In this document: positions 945 through 21,621 of the stretch, one piece after another
Numbering within the stretch: position 1 is the first letter of the stretch
Layout of the letters: every line of letters starts with the position of its first letter
Assembly: GCA_025062325.1 (NCBI GenBank)
Contig: JANXAL010000069.1
Span: 1-64,000, forward strand
DNA length: 64,000 nucleotides
DNA from: Roseiflexus sp.
GTDB lineage: Bacteria; Chloroflexota; Chloroflexia; Chloroflexales; Roseiflexaceae
Direction of reading: 5' to 3'
The notes under the pieces: generated by a model
Databases searched by the model: none
Seen by the model: only the letters and a program-made list of their open reading frames with translations
What the model was told of the DNA's origin: nothing
Made by a program: the position numbers and the translations under genes

Positions 945-3203
945 ATGCACGAACACGCGCATTGCGCGGCGCTCGCGGCGCTGCGCTTCTGGGCGACGGC
1001 GGCAAACGGCGATGAGGGTGCAACCGCAGTGCCGGACGCAGTGGGCGATGTGGTGCATCGCGCCGCGCGGCTGGTCTTCGGCGACGATGCCCTGCCGCGC
1101 CTCGATCTGACCCGGCCGCTTACGACGGTGTTTGGGCGTTTGCAGGGGGCGCCAGCGGCGTATGTGCGCCGCGCGCCGCTGGCGCTGACTGAGGAGACCC
1201 TCTTTCCATCGGTTGAACCGCACGTTGATGCGGCGGCAACCGACAGGCTGCGCGCGGCGCTGCGCTCTGCCGACGATCAGAGTGCGCGCCTGCCGATCGC
1301 GCCGCGTGTCGAGGCGCTCCTCTTCGCGCTGCAGCGGTATGCCTGGTGTCTCCCCTCGCCCCTCGACGGCGTGTCGCTGTACGATGCGGCGCGCATCCAC
1401 GCGGCGGTTGCGGCGGCGCTCGCGGCGGCGCTCGCTGTTGATGCCGACCTGCTGCTCGTCGGCGGCGATATTTCCGGTGTGCAGGAGTTCATCTACTCGG
1501 TCAGCGCCGCTGGCGCAACCCGTCAACTGCGGGGGCGCTCGTTCTATCTGCAATTGTTGACCGATGCATGCGCGCATGACCTGCTGCACCAGGCGGGGAT
1601 GCCGTTCTGTAACCTGCTCTATGCCGGAGGCGGGCGCTTTTATGTGCTGCTCCCTGCGTCATACGAGCCGCGCCTCGTCGCCTGGCGGCGCGACATCGGT
1701 CAACTGCTCCTCGATGCGCACGGCGGCGCGCTCTACCTGGCGCTCGGCGGGGTGCGCTTCGCGCCGCAGGAGTACAACGACTCCACCTGGCAGCGCCTGA
1801 CCGGGCAGATCGACGATGCCAAGCTCCGTCGCTTCGCCGAGCTTGATGATGCGGCGTTCGCCGGATTATTCGAACCGGTGCAGCCGGAGCCGCCGCCGGA
1901 CAGCGAAACCCAATCCGCCGAACCGCTCGACGCGATGGGTGAGTCGCTCGAAGACCTGGGGCGGCGGCTGGCGCGCGTGAAACTGCTGTCGGTCGAGCCG
2001 AGGGAACCGCGCGCCGCGCCCTTCCGCCGCCGCGAGGCGCGCTGGCACGAGGTGCTGCGCAGCCTGGGGTTGAATGTCGCTCCGCTCGACGATCCGCGCG
2101 ACTATCGCGCTGATCCATCCCATCGGCGGCGGGTGCTGCTGATTGACGACAGCATCGACCCGCAGACCCTTCCTCTCGGACCGCAGGACGTCGTCGGGAT
2201 GCGCTATACGGTCGCGGTGGCGCAACTGGCGACACTGGAAGATGTTGCGCAGTATCAGGCGCTCGAACGCAACGCTGACGATGATCAGACGTTGCATCCG
2301 GGTGATGTCAAGCCGTTCAACCTGCTGGCGGAACAGAGCCTCGGCGTGCGGCGGATCGGCGTGCTGCGCATGGATGTGGACGACCTCGGCGATCTCTTCG
2401 GGCGACGCCTGAATCGCCCGCCCGGTCTGGCGGGTCTGGCGGTCACGGCGGCGCTCAGCGCGACGTTGAGCCGCTACTTCGAGGGATGGGTCGGCGAGCT
2501 GTGCCGCCGCGCCAACAACGACGGCGGCGCCGGCGGGGTGTGTGCCGTGTACAGCGGCGGCGACGATCTCTTCCTGGTGGGATCGTGGCATCGCATGCCG
2601 CGCCTGGCGCAGCAGATCCGCCGCGACTTTGCGCGCTATGCGCTGGGACGCGCGCCGCGCCCCGGCGAAGCGCCGCCCATCACCCTGTCGGGCGGGATGA
2701 CGCTGCACACTGCGCGCTACCCGCTCTACCAGGCGGCTGACGATGCCGCCGAAGCGCTCGACGCCGCGAAACGCCACACGCGCCCTGACCGGCACGCCAA
2801 AGATGCCATGACCTTCCTGGGGCGCACCCTCGGCTGGGAACACTTCGGCGAAGCAGCAGACCTGTGCGATGAACTGGTTGATCTGGTACAGAAGCAGGGC
2901 GTGCCGCGCAGCCTGCTGATGGTCATTCAGACGCTCGACGCGCGCGCGCGCCAGGCGCAGCGGCGCAATCGCGGCGGCGACCCGCAGTTCACCTACGGAC
3001 CGTGGGTGTGGCAGGGCGCCTATCAGTTGACGCGCGTCGCCGAGCGATCCCCGAACGGGGTCAAAGAGCGCATCAACGATCTGCGCGATCGGATCGTCGG
3101 CGACGATGGGGTGCAGCACCGTTTCATCGAGCGGGCGGGTCTCGCCGCTCGCTGGGCGCAATTACTGGTTCGTGAACGCAGCAGTGCAAAGGAGGAACGA
3201 TGA
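945..3203 (+). CDS. cas10: Type III-A CRISPR effector subunit Cas10/Csm1, HD motif not seen
   Basis: Large subunit of the Csm complex, 752 residues. Palm domain 1 is marked by the text VGGDISGVQEFIYSV near residue 175. Palm domain 2 carries MDVDDLGDLF (D477 onward) and the cyclase motif SGGDD (G538-G539-D540-D541), which in this family makes cyclic oligoadenylates from ATP after target RNA binding. The N-terminus reads HEHAHCAALAALRFWA and does not show the LLHDIGK-type HD nuclease motif usual in Csm1; the zinc-finger cysteine pairs are also not evident. The start is supported by GGGAGG just upstream. It overlaps csm2 by ATGA. The loss of HD is seen in sequence; loss of DNase activity is inferred. 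Confidence 0.95.
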   Translation: MHEHAHCAALAALRFWATAANGDEGATAVPDAVGDVVHRAARLVFGDDALPRLDLTRPLTTVFGRLQGAPAAYVRRAPLALTEETLFPSVEPHVDAAATDRLRAALRSADDQSARLPIAPRVEALLFALQRYAWCLPSPLDGVSLYDAARIHAAVAAALAAALAVDADLLLVGGDISGVQEFIYSVSAAGATRQLRGRSFYLQLLTDACAHDLLHQAGMPFCNLLYAGGGRFYVLLPASYEPRLVAWRRDIGQLLLDAHGGALYLALGGVRFAPQEYNDSTWQRLTGQIDDAKLRRFAELDDAAFAGLFEPVQPEPPPDSETQSAEPLDAMGESLEDLGRRLARVKLLSVEPREPRAAPFRRREARWHEVLRSLGLNVAPLDDPRDYRADPSHRRRVLLIDDSIDPQTLPLGPQDVVGMRYTVAVAQLATLEDVAQYQALERNADDDQTLHPGDVKPFNLLAEQSLGVRRIGVLRMDVDDLGDLFGRRLNRPPGLAGLAVTAALSATLSRYFEGWVGELCRRANNDGGAGGVCAVYSGGDDLFLVGSWHRMPRLAQQIRRDFARYALGRAPRPGEAPPITLSGGMTLHTARYPLYQAADDAAEALDAAKRHTRPDRHAKDAMTFLGRTLGWEHFGEAADLCDELVDLVQKQGVPRSLLMVIQTLDARARQAQRRNRGGDPQFTYGPWVWQGAYQLTRVAERSPNGVKERINDLRDRIVGDDGVQHRFIERAGLAARWAQLLVRERSSAKEER

Positions 3204-4543: not shown

Positions 4544-5689
4544 ATGAACGATCTCACGGTCTATTATCTGACCCCGCCGCCGGACCGCCGGACGCTCTGT
4601 TGTCATTTCGGACGTCAGGGGATCGGTCTGGAGGAAACGGGCGAAACGTTTCCGTCGGACTCGTTCTTTGCGGCGCTGGTGGCGCAGGCGGTGACGCTCG
4701 ACGACGCTGACCTCGATGCGGACGGCGTTCCGGCGCTGGCGCGCGCCTTCTGCGCTGGCGAACCGCCGTTGCGCCACAGTTCGCTCTTCCCGCGCCTCGG
4801 CGACCTGCCGCTGTTGCCGCGCCCGGCGCTCCCTCTGAACGTGGCGGACGAAACCCTGCGCGCGCGGATCGGCAAAGGATTCAAGCGCCTGAAATACCTG
4901 TCGCCAGCGCTGTTCGCCGCAGTGTGCGCCGGTCGCCCGATCACCGCTGCGCCGCTCATGCTGCAGGGCGGGAAGGTCTGGATGACCGAAGCGGAAGCCC
5001 GGACGCTGACCGTCGATCCCTGGCGACGCCAGTTGAGCGAGAGCGACGAGGCGTGGAAGCGGCGGCTGGAAACGACGCCGATCTGGTCGATTCTGAGCGA
5101 GCCGCACGTGACCGTCGACCGCGTCAGTTGCGCCTCGGCGTACTACGAAGTCGGACGGGTGACCTTTGCGCCCGGTGCGGGTCTGGCGCTGCTGGTGCGC
5201 TTCGTCGATCCGGCGTGGCGCCCGCGCTTTGAGCAGTTGCTCGACCTGCTGGGGCACAGCGGGCTTGGCGGTCGGCGATCAAGCGGCAGCGGCGCATTTG
5301 CCTGGCAGCCGGGGAAGGCGCTGGACGCCATACCCGGCGCAGCGGGAACCCGCGTTGTGCTGCTCTCGCGCTACCTTCCGGCGCAGGACGAGATCGCAGC
5401 GCTGCGCAGCCCTGAAGCGGCGTATCAACTGGTCACGGTCGGCGGGTGGTTGTTCAGTCCGGGGCAGATGCCGCAGCGCCGCCAGCGGGTGCGCATGGTC
5501 GCCGAGGGATCGGTGCTCGATGTGCGCGCCGCTGCTCCACGCGGCCAGGTGATCGATGTGCGCCCCGATTACCGCAAGAGTACGCGCGCGCACCCCGTGC
5601 TCGGCAGAGATGTCGGCACGCCGCACCCCGTCTACCGCAGCGGACTGGCGCTGACTGCGCCGATCCCCGACTGGAAGGAGGCATCCTGA
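4544..5689 (+). CDS. csm4: Type III-A CRISPR RAMP protein Csm4
   Basis: A 381-residue RAMP protein in the Csm4 position. Visible features are the N-terminal strand LTVYYLTPPPDRRTLCCHFG, a central PLMLQGGKVWMTEAEAR region and the loop SGLGGRRSSGSGAFAW near residue 250. Csm4 caps the crRNA 5' end of the complex and contacts Cas10. The stop overlaps the csm5 start as TGATG, so csm4-csm5 translation is probably coupled. At 381 residues it is somewhat longer than typical Csm4 proteins. Confidence 0.92.
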   Translation: MNDLTVYYLTPPPDRRTLCCHFGRQGIGLEETGETFPSDSFFAALVAQAVTLDDADLDADGVPALARAFCAGEPPLRHSSLFPRLGDLPLLPRPALPLNVADETLRARIGKGFKRLKYLSPALFAAVCAGRPITAAPLMLQGGKVWMTEAEARTLTVDPWRRQLSESDEAWKRRLETTPIWSILSEPHVTVDRVSCASAYYEVGRVTFAPGAGLALLVRFVDPAWRPRFEQLLDLLGHSGLGGRRSSGSGAFAWQPGKALDAIPGAAGTRVVLLSRYLPAQDEIAALRSPEAAYQLVTVGGWLFSPGQMPQRRQRVRMVAEGSVLDVRAAAPRGQVIDVRPDYRKSTRAHPVLGRDVGTPHPVYRSGLALTAPIPDWKEAS

Positions 5690-7104
5690 TGGCGTTGTTG
5701 CGCAACCAGGTCGTTTCCCTGACCATCACCACCCTTACGCCGATCCACATCGGCACTGGCGACCGGCTGGCAGCGAACCTGGATTACTACGTGGACGGCG
5801 ACGCCACGCTGGTGATCAACACCGACGCGGCGCTCGATCTGGTCGTTGATCTCTGGCAGCAGCACCGCGTCCCGTATGAGGAACAACTGCGGCGCTTCCA
5901 CGCAGAACTGGCGCAGGAAGAAGAACGCATTCGCCAGGCGGATGAGCGCCTGCGCCGCCAGATCGAGCAATTCGAGGAGAACCCGCCCCGGCGCAAGGAT
6001 GAGTACGAACGCCAGGCGAATCGTTTCCGCGAGGAGGCGCGGCGCCTGAAGGAACGCAAGCAGCAACTGGCGGAGCGCCGCGCCAATCCGCCGCAGCCGG
6101 ACGATACCGGCGATCTGTTGCCGCCGGAATTGATCTCCGGCAGCACGCTCGATCAACTGGTCGAAGGCGGGCTGCTGCCGCTCGACCGGCTGCGCGAGCG
6201 CGCGATGTTCAACGGGCGACCGCTGGTGCGCTATGCGCTGAACGGGCGCCCGGCGTCCGGCGAGGTCTATGAGCAGATCAAGGATGTTGCCGACCGCCTC
6301 TACCTGCCGGGGTCGTCGCTCAAAGGCGCCATCCGCAGTGCGCTGGCGTGGGACGTAGCGCACAGTCCGGCGATCGCGGCGCTTCAGCGGGCAGTGACAC
6401 AGGGCGCAAAGGGCGCCGACGATGAGATTGAGCAAGATGTTTTTCTCGGCACGCCCCGATCGCAACGCAGCATCAACAACACGGTGCGCGACGTGTTGCG
6501 CACGCTCCACATCAGCGACAGTGCGCCGGTTGAACGTGCGCCTGAGCTACTGGCGGTGCGCATTTACCGCAGCCGCTCGGCGCAAGGGTTGATCGCGCTC
6601 GAAGCCATTCCCGCCAACGTCGAGTTTCGCGCGACGCTCCAGATCGAACGGTACCCGTTCGAGAGCCGGGTGGCGCGTTCCATCCTTGACTTTGGCGAAT
6701 GGCAGCGCCGGTTGCAGCCGGAAGAGCTTGCGGCAGCGTGCCAGCGACGCGCTGCGCGCCTGATCGACGGCGAACTCGACTACTTCAACCGCCAGACCGA
6801 CGCTGCCGAGCTGACTCGCTTCTACACCGACCTGCGCGCACGTCTGGAGCGGATGGATGCGCACTCGTTCCTGCTGCCGATCGGCTGGGGCGCCGGCTGG
6901 CGCTCCAAAACCCTCGACGACCGGCTGCGTCAGGGTGCGGATCGTGAAAACACATTTGTGCAAGTAGTCCAACATCATAAACTCAAAAAGCACAAATCCG
7001 CTGGTTTCCGCCCCGGCGACGTCTTCCCGGAGACGCGCAAAGTTATCGTGCGCGGCGCATTGCCCTGGCAGCCATTGGGATGGGTCGAGGCGCGGATAGG
7101 TTGA
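5689..7104 (+). CDS. csm5: Type III-A CRISPR RAMP protein Csm5 with coiled-coil insertion
   Basis: A 471-residue RAMP protein with LTPIHIGTGDRL at the N-terminus and YLPGSSLKGAIRSALAWD in the middle, both typical of Csm5, which caps the crRNA 3' end and aids maturation. The start is the ATG inside TGATG with GGAGG upstream; an in-frame extension before it overlaps csm4 and is not used. Residues about 63-125 are a highly charged Glu/Arg/Gln-rich segment (for example AQEEERIRQADERLRRQ) that should form a coiled coil, inserted after the first strands. This insertion is unusual for the family. It is the last gene of the tight csm1-5 operon. Confidence 0.92.
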   Translation: MALLRNQVVSLTITTLTPIHIGTGDRLAANLDYYVDGDATLVINTDAALDLVVDLWQQHRVPYEEQLRRFHAELAQEEERIRQADERLRRQIEQFEENPPRRKDEYERQANRFREEARRLKERKQQLAERRANPPQPDDTGDLLPPELISGSTLDQLVEGGLLPLDRLRERAMFNGRPLVRYALNGRPASGEVYEQIKDVADRLYLPGSSLKGAIRSALAWDVAHSPAIAALQRAVTQGAKGADDEIEQDVFLGTPRSQRSINNTVRDVLRTLHISDSAPVERAPELLAVRIYRSRSAQGLIALEAIPANVEFRATLQIERYPFESRVARSILDFGEWQRRLQPEELAAACQRRAARLIDGELDYFNRQTDAAELTRFYTDLRARLERMDAHSFLLPIGWGAGWRSKTLDDRLRQGADRENTFVQVVQHHKLKKHKSAGFRPGDVFPETRKVIVRGALPWQPLGWVEARIG

Positions 7105-7908: not shown

Positions 7909-9372
7909 ATGAGCATTCTGGTTCTGGCGAACATCGGCAACAGCGACCTGAACGTTGACGGCAGGCGATTGCAGCGTCCGCGTTCCGAAGGCGAGGCGGT
8001 GTGGGCGACGTTTGAACAGCATACGTTCGAGATGCCGATCATCGAGCCGTGCATCCGCTGGATCGTCCGGCGCCAGCCAATCGACCGGCTGATCCTGTTC
8101 TACACCGACCAGCCGGAGACGCCGGAGACGCTGAAGCTGGATCGGTTCGGCGTGTCGCTGCGCGACAAAGATACGCTCTGGTGTGCACAGATCATCACGC
8201 GTCTGCTGCGAGAGCGGTTCGGCGAGCAGATCGCACGGATCGACCATCAGGCGGTTGTGGGCGCTGGCGGGCGCGCGATCAACCCCAGCATGTACGATGA
8301 AGCCTTCGACGCCTACGCCGGTCTGATCGCGCCGCTTTCAGACCCGCAGACGACGTGCTACGTCCTGATGGCGGGCGGCATCCCGGCGTGCAACACGGCG
8401 CTGCAACTGCACGCTATCAGCGCCTTCGGCAACCACTGCCACGTAGTGTACCAGCCGGAAGGCGGGCAGCCCTACGAACTGCGCGTCGGCGACCAGGTGC
8501 TGAACACCTTCCGCCGCGCTGCCGCCATTGAAGCCCTCGAACGCCTCGACTTCGCCACCGCACTGTCGATTGTGCGCCAGTTCAACGATGCGGCGTTGAA
8601 AGCGCTCGTGGAGCATGCCCACTACCGCGAGTGCTTCGACTTCGAACGGGCGCAGGCGGCGCTTGCTGACGGCATTCGCCAGGCGAGCGGCGCGTTGCGC
8701 ACCTTCCTCGCCGACCTTGAACGCGACCTCGACCCGCTCATGCAGTGCTCCAACATGGGCGCATTACTGCGCGAACTTGTCGCCAATGCGGACATCACCT
8801 TCCGCAACGGACGCTACGCCGATTTCCTCGGGCGCATGTTCCGCTTCCAGGAAGCCGCGCTGCGCTATATCGTCGAAACAAAACTCGACCTGCCGACCGA
8901 TATGAGCAAAGAGCGCAAAGCGGTTAATCTGCCAGCGTACCAGCAGCGCATCGAGGCTGACCCCGGTTTGAAAGCCTGGCTCGACGGGCGCACGATTGAC
9001 GGGACGCCATTGCGCTACGACCATCCCAACATCCCGGCAATGCAGGCAATGCTCGAGTACCTCGTTAACGCCAAAAGTATCAAGCCTGATGGCAAACCCT
9101 ATCTGTCGAAGGACGAGCAGGGGCGACTCACCGGCGTCAAGCAGCGCCTCGACAAAATCACCGCGCTCTCGCAGTTGCGCAACCAGAGCGTGATTGCGCA
9201 CGGATTCGCGGGTGTTTCGCGCGAGCGGCTGGCGGAAGTGTACAACGGCGACCCGGCGATGTTAATCAGCGACCTGCGCAAGATTGCGGAACTCCTCGGA
9301 CTCGCCGCTCAGGAATCGCCATTCGAGCGCATCGCCGCCGTTGCGATTGAGCAGTTGCGACACCTGACGTGA
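7909..9372 (+). CDS. csm6: Csm6-like CARF-HEPN ribonuclease
   Basis: A 487-residue protein. The N-terminal half is a CARF-like Rossmann domain (ILVLANIGNSDL at residues 3-14, then YVLMAGGIPACNTALQL near residue 150), expected to bind cyclic oligoadenylate. The C-terminal half is a HEPN domain with the catalytic pattern R-X6-H, RNQSVIAH (R424 to H431). Csm6 proteins are dimeric RNases activated by the Cas10 second messenger, degrading cell and phage RNA. The start has AGGAGG seven nt upstream. It is separated from csm5 by about 800 bp of repeats and so probably has its own transcription start or relies on read-through. Confidence 0.9.
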   Translation: MSILVLANIGNSDLNVDGRRLQRPRSEGEAVWATFEQHTFEMPIIEPCIRWIVRRQPIDRLILFYTDQPETPETLKLDRFGVSLRDKDTLWCAQIITRLLRERFGEQIARIDHQAVVGAGGRAINPSMYDEAFDAYAGLIAPLSDPQTTCYVLMAGGIPACNTALQLHAISAFGNHCHVVYQPEGGQPYELRVGDQVLNTFRRAAAIEALERLDFATALSIVRQFNDAALKALVEHAHYRECFDFERAQAALADGIRQASGALRTFLADLERDLDPLMQCSNMGALLRELVANADITFRNGRYADFLGRMFRFQEAALRYIVETKLDLPTDMSKERKAVNLPAYQQRIEADPGLKAWLDGRTIDGTPLRYDHPNIPAMQAMLEYLVNAKSIKPDGKPYLSKDEQGRLTGVKQRLDKITALSQLRNQSVIAHGFAGVSRERLAEVYNGDPAMLISDLRKIAELLGLAAQESPFERIAAVAIEQLRHLT

Positions 9373-9571
9373 AGCATACGCAGAAACTGTTGTTCTGTGA
9401 CATCGGCAGCAATACGTTGATCGACGCTCTGTTGCGCGCGGTGGAACAGCCGTAGCGCGGGCGACACGACGCCCCATCGCAGCACCTTAACAACTGCATA
9501 GAAGCTGATCGCTGCCACCGCAGGCGCGCCCGCCGTGGGCGCGCGCAGGCGCGGGTGGGAGGGGCGCTCCT

Positions 9572-9746
9572 CTCACGTGTAGGCTTTTTGGCGTGCGAAG
9601 CAGGTTTGTCGCGTCCTGACGCCCTTTTGCCCCTCATCCCCCCTGCCCCCTTCGCCCACCAGGGGAGAAGGGGGAGTTGGGGCGTTCTGTTGCCTGAAGC
9701 AGGCGATGCAACGTAAGAGCTTGCTAAAAAAATCTACACTTGTGAG
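9572..9746 (+). repeat. MITE-like repeat, full-length copy
   Basis: A 175-bp element that starts CTCACGTGTAGGCTTTTTGGC and ends TCTACACTTGTGAG; the ends are imperfect terminal inverted repeats. The core is CCCCTCATCCCCCC followed by a hairpin around AGGGGAGAAGGGGGAG. It encodes no protein. It is flanked by a duplicated GC-rich segment of about 45 bp. Confidence 0.75.
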
Positions 9747-9833
9747 GAGGGGCGCCCCCCGGTGGGCGCACGCAGGCGCGGGTGGAAGGGGCGCTCTCCT
9801 GTAGGCGCGTGCGGCGCCCCGTCGCTGTTTACC

Positions 9834-9862
9834 GTAAGGGCAGGTCTCAGACCTGCCCAACC
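9834..9862 (+). repeat. GC-rich palindrome upstream of cas6
   Basis: GGGCAGGTCT and AGACCTGCCC form a 10-bp stem around a single C. The same palindrome (with GGGCGGGTCT arms) occupies three spacer-like positions in and after the CRISPR array and occurs again at 47,664-47,696. Here, as in the array tail, it is followed directly by a repeat-like sequence. Confidence 0.85.
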
Positions 9863-9897
9863 GTGAGAAGAGAATCCCCGCCGGGGACTGGAAAGGA
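9863..9897 (+). promoter_or_regulatory. CRISPR-repeat-like hairpin overlapping the cas6 ribosome-binding site
   Basis: GTGAGAAGAGAATCCCC, a GCC loop, then GGGGACTGGAAAG closely follows the array repeat (GTGAGAAAAACCC, AATCCCCGCCAGGGGATT, GAAAC) with a 3-nt deletion in the 5' part, one base missing in the loop and few changes in the last 8 nt. The likely ribosome-binding site AAAGGA (9892-9897) begins in its 3' end, 7 nt before the cas6 ATG. Cas6 binding or cleavage here could repress its own translation. The match and position are seen; the regulation is inferred. Confidence 0.7.
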
Positions 9898-9904
9898 CAC
9901 ACCC

Positions 9905-10723
9905 ATGCCCGTATCACTGATCTTCACCATCCGCCCGCTTGCGTCGGCGCAAACATCGTCATCGCTCGGGCGCGCGGCGCACGCTGCCGTCCTGCGTCTG
10001 ATCAACGACGCCGATCCAACGCTCGCGGCGCAGATCCACGACGACGACGGACCCAAACCATTGACCGTCTCGAACGTTATCGGTCTCGAAGCGCGCAATC
10101 ATAGTGCGCACGTTCATCCTGATCGCCAGTACCGACTGCGGGTCACATTGCTGACCCCGGCGCTTGAGGCGATCGCCGCAACCTGGCGCCCCGACACGCT
10201 CGGGCCGCTCGACCTCGACGGTGTGCTCTGGCGCGTCGAGCGGATAACCGGTGATCCTGCCGACGATCCGTGGGCAGGAAGTTCCACATATGAGAAACTG
10301 GCGTCTGCGGTCATCAACCGCAGCGCCGCCCCTTCGCGCTGGACGTTCGAGTTTGCCACGCCGGTCACATTCCGGCAGCGTGGTCTCAACCAACCGCTGC
10401 CGCTGCCAGCGCTAGTCTTCGGCAGCCTCCTCGAACGCTGGAACGCATTTGCGCCTATTGCTTTCCCCGATGAGGCGCGCCGGTTTGCCGAAGAGTGCAT
10501 CGCGGTCAGCCGGTTCAACCTGCACTCGCGGTCTGAGCCGACGAAGGGCGGCGTTCCGCAGATCGGCGCCACAGGGCGCGTCACGTATGCCGCCGTCAAC
10601 CGTGACCGCTACTGGCTGGCGTGCATCAACACACTGGCGCGCTTCGCCCTGTTCAGCGGCATTGGCGCTAGCACAACTCGCGGCTACGGTCAGGCGCGCC
10701 TGCTGGACAGCGACGACCGCTGA
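9905..10723 (+). CDS. cas6: CRISPR pre-crRNA endoribonuclease Cas6
   Basis: A 272-residue Cas6. The N-terminal text SSSLGRAAHAAVLRLINDADPTLA followed by HDDDGPKPLTVSNVIG is typical of the family, and the C-terminal glycine-rich RNA-binding loop is FSGIGASTTRGYGQARLL. Cas6 cuts the CRISPR transcript at the base of each repeat hairpin, leaving the 8-nt handle ATTGAAAC for crRNAs in this locus. The start is the ATG with AAAGGA seven nt upstream; in-frame sequence before it crosses a palindrome and repeat-like hairpin and is unlikely to be coding. Cas1 follows after a 255-bp gap. Confidence 0.92.
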   Translation: MPVSLIFTIRPLASAQTSSSLGRAAHAAVLRLINDADPTLAAQIHDDDGPKPLTVSNVIGLEARNHSAHVHPDRQYRLRVTLLTPALEAIAATWRPDTLGPLDLDGVLWRVERITGDPADDPWAGSSTYEKLASAVINRSAAPSRWTFEFATPVTFRQRGLNQPLPLPALVFGSLLERWNAFAPIAFPDEARRFAEECIAVSRFNLHSRSEPTKGGVPQIGATGRVTYAAVNRDRYWLACINTLARFALFSGIGASTTRGYGQARLLDSDDR

Positions 10724-10978: not shown

Positions 10979-11998
10979 ATGGCAACCCTCTACGTCACCG
11001 AACAGGGCAGTGAGATCGGCTGCGACGGCGAGCGGTTGGTTGTGCGGCGCGACGGCGCCGTCATTGCCAGTGTGCCGCTGGTCAAAATTGAAGATATCGT
11101 CATCATCGGGAATGTCGGGGTGACCACGCCAGCGATCAAACGCATGCTCGACAACGGCATCAACGTTACCTTTCTAACCGTGCATGGGCGCTACCACGGT
11201 CGTCTGGTCGGCGCTGTCAGCGCGCACGCCGCATTGCGCGCCGCGCAATACCGGCGCGCCGAGGACCGCGAATGGTCCCTGCGTCTGGCGCAGCGATTTG
11301 TCGAAGGCAAGCTGCGCAACTGTCGCGCCCTGTTACGCCGTTTTGCGCGCAATCGCGCCGATGCGTCCGCTGACGTCGAGCAGGCTGCCGACGACCTCGA
11401 CCGTTTCATTGAGCGCGTACCGCGCACCACTACCCTCAATGCACTCATAGGAGTCGAAGGGAGCGCCACCGCGCGGTACTTTGCCGGCGTGCGCGCCCTG
11501 ATCGGACCGGAATGGCGCTTCGAGGCGCGCATCCGTCGGCCGCCGCCGGACCGGGTGAACGCCCTGCTCTCCTTCGGATACACCCTGCTGGTGCATAAGA
11601 TGCTCGGCGCTGTGGAAGCGGCTGGCTTCGATCCCTACCTAGGCTATTTACACCAGGTAGACTATGGACGGCCATCGCTGGCGCTCGATCTGATTGAAGA
11701 GTTTCGCCCAATTCTGGTCGACTCGCTGGTGATCCGCTGTTGCAATGACGGGCGCATTGCCTTCGACGACTTTACCGAAACGCCGGACGGCGACTACCCG
11801 GTGCTCTTGAGCGACGAAGGCAAACGGCGATTTGTCGCCGCATTCGAGGAGCGTATGCGCACCGAAGTGACCCACCCCGATGGCGCTGACGGTCGGCCGG
11901 GGAAGGCCAGCTACCTGCGCTGCCTGGCGCTTCAGGCGCGGCAACTGGCGCGCGCCGTGCAGGGAGGACCGGAGTACGAACCGTTCGTGGTGCGGTGA
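10979..11998 (+). CDS. cas1: CRISPR adaptation integrase Cas1
   Basis: A 339-residue Cas1. The N-terminal beta domain begins MATLYVTEQGSEIGCDGERL. The C-terminal helical domain has the metal-binding set: E160 in IGVEGSATARYF, H225 in LGYLHQVDYGRPSLALDLIEEFRP and acidic residues at 237-241. With Cas2 it integrates new spacers at the leader end of the array. The ATG has GGAG upstream and gives the usual family length; a longer in-frame form would start inside the duplicated repeat and is rejected. Cas2 follows after 10 nt. Confidence 0.96.
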   Translation: MATLYVTEQGSEIGCDGERLVVRRDGAVIASVPLVKIEDIVIIGNVGVTTPAIKRMLDNGINVTFLTVHGRYHGRLVGAVSAHAALRAAQYRRAEDREWSLRLAQRFVEGKLRNCRALLRRFARNRADASADVEQAADDLDRFIERVPRTTTLNALIGVEGSATARYFAGVRALIGPEWRFEARIRRPPPDRVNALLSFGYTLLVHKMLGAVEAAGFDPYLGYLHQVDYGRPSLALDLIEEFRPILVDSLVIRCCNDGRIAFDDFTETPDGDYPVLLSDEGKRRFVAAFEERMRTEVTHPDGADGRPGKASYLRCLALQARQLARAVQGGPEYEPFVVR

Positions 11999-12008
11999 AG
12001 GAGCGTGC

Positions 12009-12290
12009 ATGCTATACGTCATCGCCTACGACATCCCGGACGACGCGCGACGCCTGAAGCTGGCGAAGGTGCTGGAAGGATTTGGACAGCGCGTCCAGCG
12101 TAGCGTCTTCGAGTGCGACCTGACCGAACGGGAGTACCGCGCGCTGCTGAAAAAAGTCGAGCGCGTCATCAAGCTGGACGAAGGGGACAGCGTGCGCATC
12201 TACCGGTTGTGTAGCGCGTGCGCAACGAACGTTGAGGTCAAAGGTGAAGGGCTGCCAGTCGAAAAGAGCAATGACTTCTACGTCGTCTGA
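12009..12290 (+). CDS. cas2: CRISPR adaptation protein Cas2
   Basis: A 93-residue ferredoxin-fold protein with MLYVIAYDIPDDARRLKLAK at the start, the conserved Asp in AYDIPDD and the RSVFECDLTE strand. The C-terminus has two cysteines (LCSACATNVEVKG). Cas2 dimers bridge two Cas1 dimers during spacer capture. AAGGAG lies just before the ATG. It is cotranscribed with cas1 and directly precedes the leader. Confidence 0.96.
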   Translation: MLYVIAYDIPDDARRLKLAKVLEGFGQRVQRSVFECDLTEREYRALLKKVERVIKLDEGDSVRIYRLCSACATNVEVKGEGLPVEKSNDFYVV

Positions 12291-12500: not shown

Positions 12501-13000
12501 GTGAGAAAAACCCAAATCCCCGCCAGGGGATTGAAAGTCAACGTCTGGCATGTCACGTTGCTGGGCGACAAGCGGGTGAGAAAAACCCAAATCCCCGCCA
12601 GGGGATTGAAACGAGTGGTGAGGGGTTTGTGGGACAGTGGGATGACGGCAAGATGTGTGAGAAAAACCCAAATCCCCGCCAGGGGATTGAAACAGCAGCA
12701 GCCCCGCCCACCCTGCCGGGCGAGCGAGGCTGGTGAGAAAAACCCAAATCCCCGCCAGGGGATTGAAACTATCGCATCGAACCCCCAGGGTTCATTTGAA
12801 CCGGCAGTAATCGGGAGAAAAACCCAAATCTCCGCCAGGGGATTGAAACATCAAATACAAGCGCACGCGGAACATGCGACAAACAATCAGTGAGAAAACC
12901 CCACATCCCCGCCAGGGGAATGAAACGTAAGGGCGGGTCTCAGACCCGCCCGTGCGCCCGGTTGGTGCGCCAACCCACATCTCCGCCAGGGGAATGAAAC
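12501..13000 (+). CRISPR. CRISPR array, five good repeats then two degenerate repeats
   Basis: Repeats of 37 bp lie at 12,501, 12,576, 12,657, 12,733, 12,813 and 12,890, and a 36-bp degenerate one at 12,965. They start GTGAGAAAAACCC, carry the hairpin AATCCCCGCCAGGGGATT and end GAAAC. Spacers are 38, 44, 39, 43, 40 and 38 bp. The ATTGAAAC end shows transcription from left to right. Repeat 5 has two changes, repeats 6 and 7 have AATGAAAC and CACAT changes, so the right side is the old end. The sixth spacer is the GTAAGGGCGGGTCT palindrome and the same sequence follows repeat 7. Confidence 0.97.
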
Positions 13001-13061
13001 GTAAGGGCGGGTCTCAGACCCGCCCATGCACCCGGTTTCGTTGTTTCAATAGGAGAGCGCC

Positions 13062-13554: not shown

Positions 13555-13665
13555 GAGAGAAAAACCCACATCCCCGCCAGAGGGTTGAAACGTAAGGGCG
13601 GGTCTCAGACCCGCCCTTACGCCCGGTTGGCGCAAAAAACCCACATCCTGCCAGGGGATTGAAAT
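13555..13665 (+). CRISPR. Outlying degenerate CRISPR repeat pair around the palindromic spacer
   Basis: GAGAGAAAAACCCACATCCC with hairpin and GGTTGAAAC end (13,555-13,591) is followed by the palindrome GTAAGGGCGGGTCTCAGACC (13,592-13,620 with its full arms) and by a second, deleted repeat (about 13,630-13,665) ending GGGGATTGAAAT. It is about 550 bp beyond the main array and probably a relic. Confidence 0.8.
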
Positions 13666-21194: not shown

Positions 21195-21621
21195 CAGCAG
21201 TCGTCTATGTCTAATCGAGCGCTCCACCATTCACAGCAGAGCAGGATTCAGCATGAACCTGGACGATGCCGAGAAGGGGGAGTTCCATCACTTCTCTTTC
21301 GTGTAGGCTTTTGGTGTGCGAAGCAGGTTTGCCGCATCTTGACGCCCTTGTTCCCCTCATCCCCCCTGCCCCCTTCTCCCACAAGGGGAGAAGGGGGAGT
21401 GTGCGCATCGCAACGCCCAAAACGGGCAATACAACATAAAGGCTTGCCGAAAAACCTACACCTGTGAGCTCCCCCCTTCTCCCGCTCCCCTGCGCCCCTC
21501 GCATGCGGGGGGTTGGGGGGAGAAGGGGGAGTTTACCCATCCTAACGCTCACAACGGGCGATGCAATGGAAGGGCGTGCCGAAAAATCGACACGCGTGAG
21601 GTTCGTCGCCCCCGAGGGGGT
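21195..21621. repeat. Two tandem MITE-like repeats
   Basis: A full copy at about 21,298-21,468 starts GTGTAGGCTTTTGGTGTGCG and ends CTACACCTGTGAG. It is followed by a copy with its own CCCCCCTTCTCCC core and end CGACACGCGTGAG (to about 21,600). No gene is present. Confidence 0.75.

What the first reader, a model, noticed from the sequence alone, without database searches (positions are those of the whole stretch)
9834..9905. CRISPR-repeat mimic hairpin over the cas6 ribosome-binding site
A palindrome followed directly by a near-copy of the array repeat (same AATCCCC...GGGGA stem and GGAAAG-like handle) ends in the cas6 ribosome-binding site, 8 nt before the ATG. Cas6 binds this repeat class by nature, so its own mRNA leader could be a target, giving a negative feedback loop in which free Cas6 blocks or cuts its message. 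The similarity and placement are seen; the autoregulation is inferred.
Basis: partly seen in the sequence, partly recalled or inferred. Interest (0 to 1): 0.78.

Follow-up and report, generated by a model that had tools for sequence, protein, structure and literature searches.

The report
CRISPR-repeat copy in cas6 leader
In a Roseiflexus-like bacterium and the two relatives in its family that carry this gene, the messenger of the CRISPR-processing enzyme Cas6 bears, at its ribosome-binding site, a small hairpin resembling the RNA repeat that Cas6 normally binds, which suggests (but does not prove) that Cas6 limits its own production.

Summary
The repeat-like hairpin is real; the palindrome beside it is unrelated. 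At 9873-9897, directly before cas6 of a type III-A locus, lies the core of the locus's own CRISPR repeat (AATCCCC-loop-GGGGA) running into the Shine-Dalgarno. Outside arrays AATCCCCN3-4GGGG occurs nowhere else in this 4.7-Mb genome, nor in sister species G068, where only a 32-nt block before the cas6 ATG still aligns (28/32, against 64% at four-fold sites). In a third relative, of another genus (G070), the cas6 start carries AATCCTCGAAAGGGG, with the C-to-T change of its own repeat. So 3 of 3 Roseiflexaceae with this cas6 have it; Chloroflexus, Oscillochloris and Herpetosiphon, with the same repeat class, do not. The palindrome 9833-9859 is a dispersed element (50 genomic sites), absent from G068. 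Best reading: a repeat-derived Cas6 site over the start, for negative feedback. Binding, cutting and repression are untested; the stem is weak (5 bp); a relic of an array repeat kept as SD context remains possible. No report of Cas6 control through its own leader was found in the papers held here.

The parts
9873..9887 (+). Repeat-core hairpin in the cas6 leader: AATCCCC-GCC-GGGGA (5-bp stem UCCCC/GGGGA, 3-nt loop)
   Evidence: sequence; rarity and score; folding; kept in G068 and, as AATCCTC-GAAA-GGGG, in G070
9886..9887 (+). Predicted Cas6 cut site (between these bases) by analogy with the 8-nt repeat tag
   Evidence: inference from GGGG^ATTGAAAC in the array repeat; not tested
9890..9897 (+). 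GGAAAGGA: handle-like sequence that is also the cas6 Shine-Dalgarno, 7 nt before ATG
   Evidence: GAAAGGACACACCC identical in G068; a GAAAGGA before ATG also occurs without any hairpin in L030
9863..9869 (+). GTGAGAA, same as the 5' end of the array repeat; possible remnant of a full repeat
   Evidence: sequence; could be chance
9833..9859 (.). Dispersed palindrome, not part of the element
   Evidence: absent in G068
9905..10723 (+). cas6
   Evidence: TIGR01877 64.6 bits over cut-off 58.65; PF10040 67 bits; conserved start Met-Pro
10979..11998 (+). cas1
12009..12290 (+). cas2
12501..12849 (+). CRISPR array, repeat GTGAGAAAAACCCAAATCCCCGCCAGGGGATTGAAAC; degenerate repeats follow to 13665

Best explanation
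The cas6 leader holds a standalone, trimmed copy of the CRISPR repeat core joined to the Shine-Dalgarno sequence. Proposed mechanism: when Cas6 exceeds the pre-crRNA available, it binds this hairpin in its own mRNA, a few bases from the SD, and blocks ribosome loading (autogenous negative feedback); it may also cut after GGGG. In this species a cut would leave the SD on an 18-nt leader; in G070, where the SD lies in the 3' arm of the hairpin, binding would hide the SD and a cut would remove it. Shown: the repeat-like sequence, its place at the ribosome-binding site, its conservation in three Roseiflexaceae, its likeness to the local repeat. Inferred: binding, cutting, repression.
For: Only array-free copy of the core in G000, G068 and (with its own loop) G070, in each case 7-17 nt before the cas6 ATG. 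Between G000 and G068 the only alignable upstream DNA is the 32 nt holding stem and SD (28/32; binomial 0.0026 at the four-fold rate 0.636; stem arms 11/11, 0.007); the changes fall in the loop, in a U-A to U-G pair, and once after the stem. G070's leader has CCTC like its own repeat, not CCCC. The Cas6 keeps H45 and K51 and its nearest solved relatives are T. thermophilus Cas6B and Cas6A. A repeat-like RNA next to a cas6 gene is cut by that Cas6 in vitro in Saccharolobus (PMC4041471).
Against: No binding, cleavage or expression data. The stem is weak and forms with probability about 0.64 here and lower in G068 and G070; the leaders fold no better than shuffled sequence when the palindrome is left out. 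Relatives outside the family with the same repeat class do without it. G068's leader handle (TTGAAAG) does not follow the ACGAC handle of its adjacent array. Only three genomes carry it.
Confidence: 0.5

Rival explanations
1. Relic: an array once lay directly upstream of cas6 and its last repeat became the leader. It is decaying, and only what serves as SD and spacing is kept; Cas6 does not regulate it.
For: L114 (Anaerolineae) has an array whose last repeat ends about 15-18 nt before the cas6 ATG. In the window GTGAGAA at 9863-9869 matches the repeat's 5' end. A GAAAGGA SD exists in a distant relative without hairpin (L030).
Against: Both stem arms are unchanged between G000 and G068 while everything upstream is lost and four-fold sites are only 64% identical; the SD does not need the 5' arm. 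The same core sits before cas6 in another genus, 10 nt closer to the ATG.
Confidence: 0.27
2. Standalone repeat that yields a crRNA-like RNA: Cas6 cuts the leader and the downstream tagged RNA is loaded into the Csm complex, as proposed for ncRNA60 and known for CreA-type guides.
For: ncRNA60 next to cas6-3 is cut by Cas6-3 and found in CSM (PMC4041471); guide-type standalone repeats are documented.
Against: No second repeat-like core within the leader or cas6, and the would-be guide is the start of the cas6 coding region itself; the tag ACUGGAAA differs from AUUGAAAC.
Confidence: 0.08
3. Plain RBS hairpin that tunes translation by folding or temperature, independent of Cas6; likeness to the repeat is chance.
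For: The SD overlaps or adjoins the stem in all three species.
Against: Chance of the core in a 50-nt leader is about 6e-5 for this genome by base composition, it is found in three of three family members and matches the local repeat; the leader as a whole folds no better than shuffled.
Confidence: 0.1
4. Ectopic DNA site for Cas1-Cas2 spacer integration rather than an RNA element.
For: cas1 and cas2 lie directly downstream.
Against: The array leader is not next to it, the 5' half of the repeat is missing, and no spacer-repeat unit is present there.
Confidence: 0.05

Closest known systems
Saccharolobus solfataricus ncRNA60, repeat-like RNA near cas6-3 (PMC4041471)
   Same: Standalone repeat-like sequence close to a cas6 gene in a type III (CSM) setting; cut by the neighbouring Cas6 in vitro
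   Different: Separate non-coding RNA, no hairpin at the repeat-like part, not described there as a cas6 leader or as feedback; archaeal; here cutting is untested
Standalone repeats / crRNA-like regulatory RNAs and CreTA (Shmakov 2023, from own knowledge, paper not held; PMC9458426; PMC8501985)
   Same: Degenerate CRISPR repeats outside arrays, kept near cas genes, with regulatory roles
   Different: Those work as guides with a spacer matching a promoter; here there is one core only and no spacer target
RNA anti-CRISPRs / solitary repeat units of phages (PMC10651486)
   Same: A single repeat mimic recognised by Cas proteins
   Different: Viral decoys; this one is inside the host's own cas operon
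Autogenous translational control by RNA-binding proteins, such as ribosomal proteins (own knowledge)
   Same: The mRNA leader mimics the protein's normal RNA target, over the ribosome-binding site
   Different: Here the protein would be a CRISPR endoribonuclease, which may also cut; not shown

Membership tests
Cas6 endoribonuclease (the gene downstream) | Passes curated Cas6 models | tested here: met
   TIGR01877 64.6 over 58.65, PF10040 67 over 25
Cas6 endoribonuclease (the gene downstream) | Catalytic histidine and lysine of the N-terminal domain | tested here: met
   H45 invariant, K51 nearly so in 16 orthologs; H45 aligns with the His of KLHEA in T. thermophilus Cas6B; that this His is catalytic is own knowledge
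CRISPR repeat (full copy) | Matches the full-length repeat model | tested here: not met
   Full 37-nt model finds the array but not the leader
Standalone repeat-derived regulatory element | Repeat-like sequence outside the array | tested here: met
   (core only)
Standalone repeat-derived regulatory element | Conserved in related cas loci | tested here: met
   3 of 3 Roseiflexaceae with this cas6; not in other families
Standalone repeat-derived regulatory element of the guide type (mini-array, CreA) | Second repeat and a spacer with a target in a promoter | tested here: not met
   No second core in the leader; the sequence after the handle is cas6 itself; promoter complementarity was not searched
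Autogenous control element | Mimic of the protein's own RNA target placed at the ribosome-binding site | tested here: met
Autogenous control element | Protein binds the leader and lowers expression | not testable with these tools
   Needs biochemistry and reporter assays
Autogenous control element | Structure supported by two-sided compensatory changes | tested here: inconclusive
   Only three sequences; one U-A to U-G change within the genus and C-G to U-G in G070

The most novel reading that the evidence does not exclude
A CRISPR endoribonuclease controls its own synthesis by binding a repeat-derived hairpin at its own ribosome-binding site, and this leader element evolves along with the array repeat in Roseiflexaceae.
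Probability: 0.42. Interest if true: 0.75.

Novelty: new variant of a known kind. Interest (0 to 1): 0.55.

Why it matters
Class 1 loci must match the amount of Cas6 to the pre-crRNA supply, and how they do so is little known. A repeat mimic on the cas6 message would be a direct sensor of free Cas6 that needs neither a guide nor a transcription factor, a natural counterpart of engineered endoribonuclease feedback circuits. It would also show how a CRISPR repeat can become a regulatory element without a spacer.

Tried and rejected
Palindrome as part of the element: rejected. Full-repeat covariance model: misses the leader. Leader mimics in Chloroflexus, Herpetosiphon, Oscillochloris: none; L134 (Chloroflexus) shares only CGATAGGGGATT, the 3' arm without the 5' arm, taken as SD-like coincidence. 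The score in L109 comes from coding sequence at the end of the upstream gene; L157 and L158 share CCCATTGGGGGGCTGAT, which reads as conserved coding (PIGGL); L099 is not significant in the survey. Other Cas6 types in Roseiflexaceae: no mimic where repeat and leader could be compared. Rfam: only two tRNAs in 1-30000. The leader pattern is absent from viral contigs and the leader from plasmids. No sigma-70-like promoter or terminator in 9300-9950. A CRISPR-leader word CGCGTCCTGAYGC upstream of cas6 also occurs elsewhere in the window and was dropped. Papers: no report of Cas6 control through its own leader found; Shmakov 2023 and Niewoehner 2014 are not held. In the survey the window's p (0.0023) is inflated by degenerate repeats left unmasked; one search masks them.

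Full report
Setting. The window lies in a 4.7-Mb, 143-contig genome; a complete genome of the same genus has 5,801,598 bases, which from own knowledge is Roseiflexus sp. RS-1. The locus is type III-A: csm1/cas10 945-3203, csm2, csm3, csm4, csm5, a csm6-like gene 7909-9372, then cas6 9905-10723, cas1 10979-11998, cas2 12009-12290 and an array from 12501 with the repeat GTGAGAAAAACCCAAATCCCCGCCAGGGGATTGAAAC. In relatives of the order Chloroflexales an array of the same repeat class follows the cas6 ortholog on the same strand.

Observation. The 5' flank of cas6 reads CCGTAAGGGCAGGTCTCAGACCTGCCCAACCGTGAGAAGAGAATCCCCGCCGGGGACTGGAAAGGACACACCC-ATG. Two different things lie side by side. The palindrome is one of 50 dispersed places in the genome; the flanks displayed for 19 of them share nothing; the sister species G068 lacks it. 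The second, AATCCCCGCCGGGGACTGGAAAGG, aligns with the core of the local repeat (score 27; 0 of 3000 masked window stretches, 0 of 3000 shuffles).

Rarity. AATCCCCN{3,4}GGGG occurs in G000 only in the array and here, and in G068 only in repeats and before cas6. Four Roseiflexus genomes without this cas6 hold 5 copies in about 20 Mb. By base composition a 50-nt sense leader would hold one with probability about 6e-5. In G070, of another genus of the family, the repeat is CTCGGAATAACCTAATCCTCGCGAGGGGATTGAAAC, and AATCCTCGAAAGGGG ends 7 nt before the cas6 ATG. The pattern AATCCTCG[AGT]NAGGGG is otherwise found in G070 only with a TG loop: in a second array at 374176-375370, at 643528 inside the array after cas6, and at 613401, about 200 nt beyond the array fetched there. 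A scan of 20 cas6 loci of the order (335 kb, one mismatch allowed) finds standalone cores before cas6 at -32, -32 and -22 in these three only; the other hits outside masked arrays are single-mismatch matches elsewhere, the unmasked repeats of G068, or lie beyond an array.

Conservation. Between G000 and G068 Cas6 is 89% identical and four-fold sites 63.6% (98/154). Directly before the ATG 32 nt align with 28 identities; the 200 nt further upstream align no better than shuffled (binomial 0.0026). The differences are two loop bases, the outermost pair U-A to U-G, and one base after the stem. AATCCCC, GGGG and GAAAGGACACACCC are unchanged. The SD and its spacing would explain the last part, not the first. 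In a survey of 46 cas6 loci with a known local repeat the five lowest p values belong to L114 (a true repeat, array directly upstream), the window, G070, a Chloroflexus sharing only the 3' arm, and G068; the rest look like chance.

Structure. Alone the hairpin is 5 bp (-7.0 kcal/mol) against 7 bp (-11.6) in the repeat; in context it forms with probability about 0.64 in the window and less in the relatives, and the leaders without the palindrome fold no better than shuffled sequence. By the usual 8-nt tag rule (own knowledge) the cut in the repeat lies after GGGG; the part of the stem above the cut, CCCC/GGGG, is then complete in the leader. This is inference.

Enzyme. The protein passes the Cas6 cut-offs, keeps H45 and K51, and its profile best matches T. 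thermophilus Cas6B and Cas6A (4c98, 4c8y).

Mechanism. Most likely the hairpin is a Cas6 site over the ribosome-binding site: free Cas6 would lower its own translation until pre-crRNA takes it up. In the window's species a cut at 9886/9887 would leave the SD, so blocking rather than destruction is the likelier mode; in G070 the SD is inside the 3' arm. None of this is shown. The main rival is a relic: L114 shows that an array can end directly before a cas6 ATG, and GTGAGAA at 9863-9869 could be the 5' end of such a repeat. The 11/11 conservation of the stem arms speaks against a pure relic, but with two species of one genus this is modest (0.007 at the four-fold rate).

Known systems. Sulfolobus ncRNA60, near cas6-3 and cut by Cas6-3 in vitro, is the nearest experimental precedent found. 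CreA and other standalone repeats act through guides. A 2023 review of CRISPR-Cas regulation did not show Cas6 leader control among the passages found, and searches of the held library found none; papers outside it could not be read. The element works like autogenous control by target mimicry if the inference holds, and is best filed as a new variant of repeat-derived regulatory elements rather than a proven new system.

Noticed in passing
window 12926-12952, 13000-13026, 13591-13617: Three further copies of the dispersed palindrome start exactly at the 3' end of degenerate CRISPR repeats, followed each time by a similar tail (CCCGGTT); with 9833-9859, 4 of 50 genomic copies lie beside CRISPR repeats. 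They could be captured as spacers and then duplicated.
   Followed up: partly
window 9586-9731 and 21309-21454: A dispersed element of about 146 nt, 80% alike, lies between the csm6-like gene and cas6 and again near the tRNA genes.
   Followed up: no
L114 8637-10000: Anaerolineae locus in which the last repeat of an upstream array abuts the SD of cas6, a natural case of a true repeat in a cas6 leader.
   Followed up: partly
window 9481-9493: AGCACCTTAACAA, a variant of a motif GGTACCTTAACAA conserved upstream of cas6 in Chloroflexus and Oscillochloris loci, here 424 nt before the ATG; it may mark the cas6 promoter.
   Followed up: partly
L185 2391-2409 (minus strand): A different Cas6-type gene (G064) has a hairpin GCCCC-GCCGAAA-GGGGACG about 30 nt before its likely start; its local repeat is not known.
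   Followed up: partly
L127 and L143: Sister species G068 has two repeat variants that differ in the handle...ATTACGAC beside cas6-cas1-cas2 and ...ATTGAAAC at a contig end.
   Followed up: no
window 5446-7104: The mechanical csm5 ORF overlaps csm4 (ends 5689); the RAMP match begins at residue 93, so the true start is probably later.
   Followed up: no
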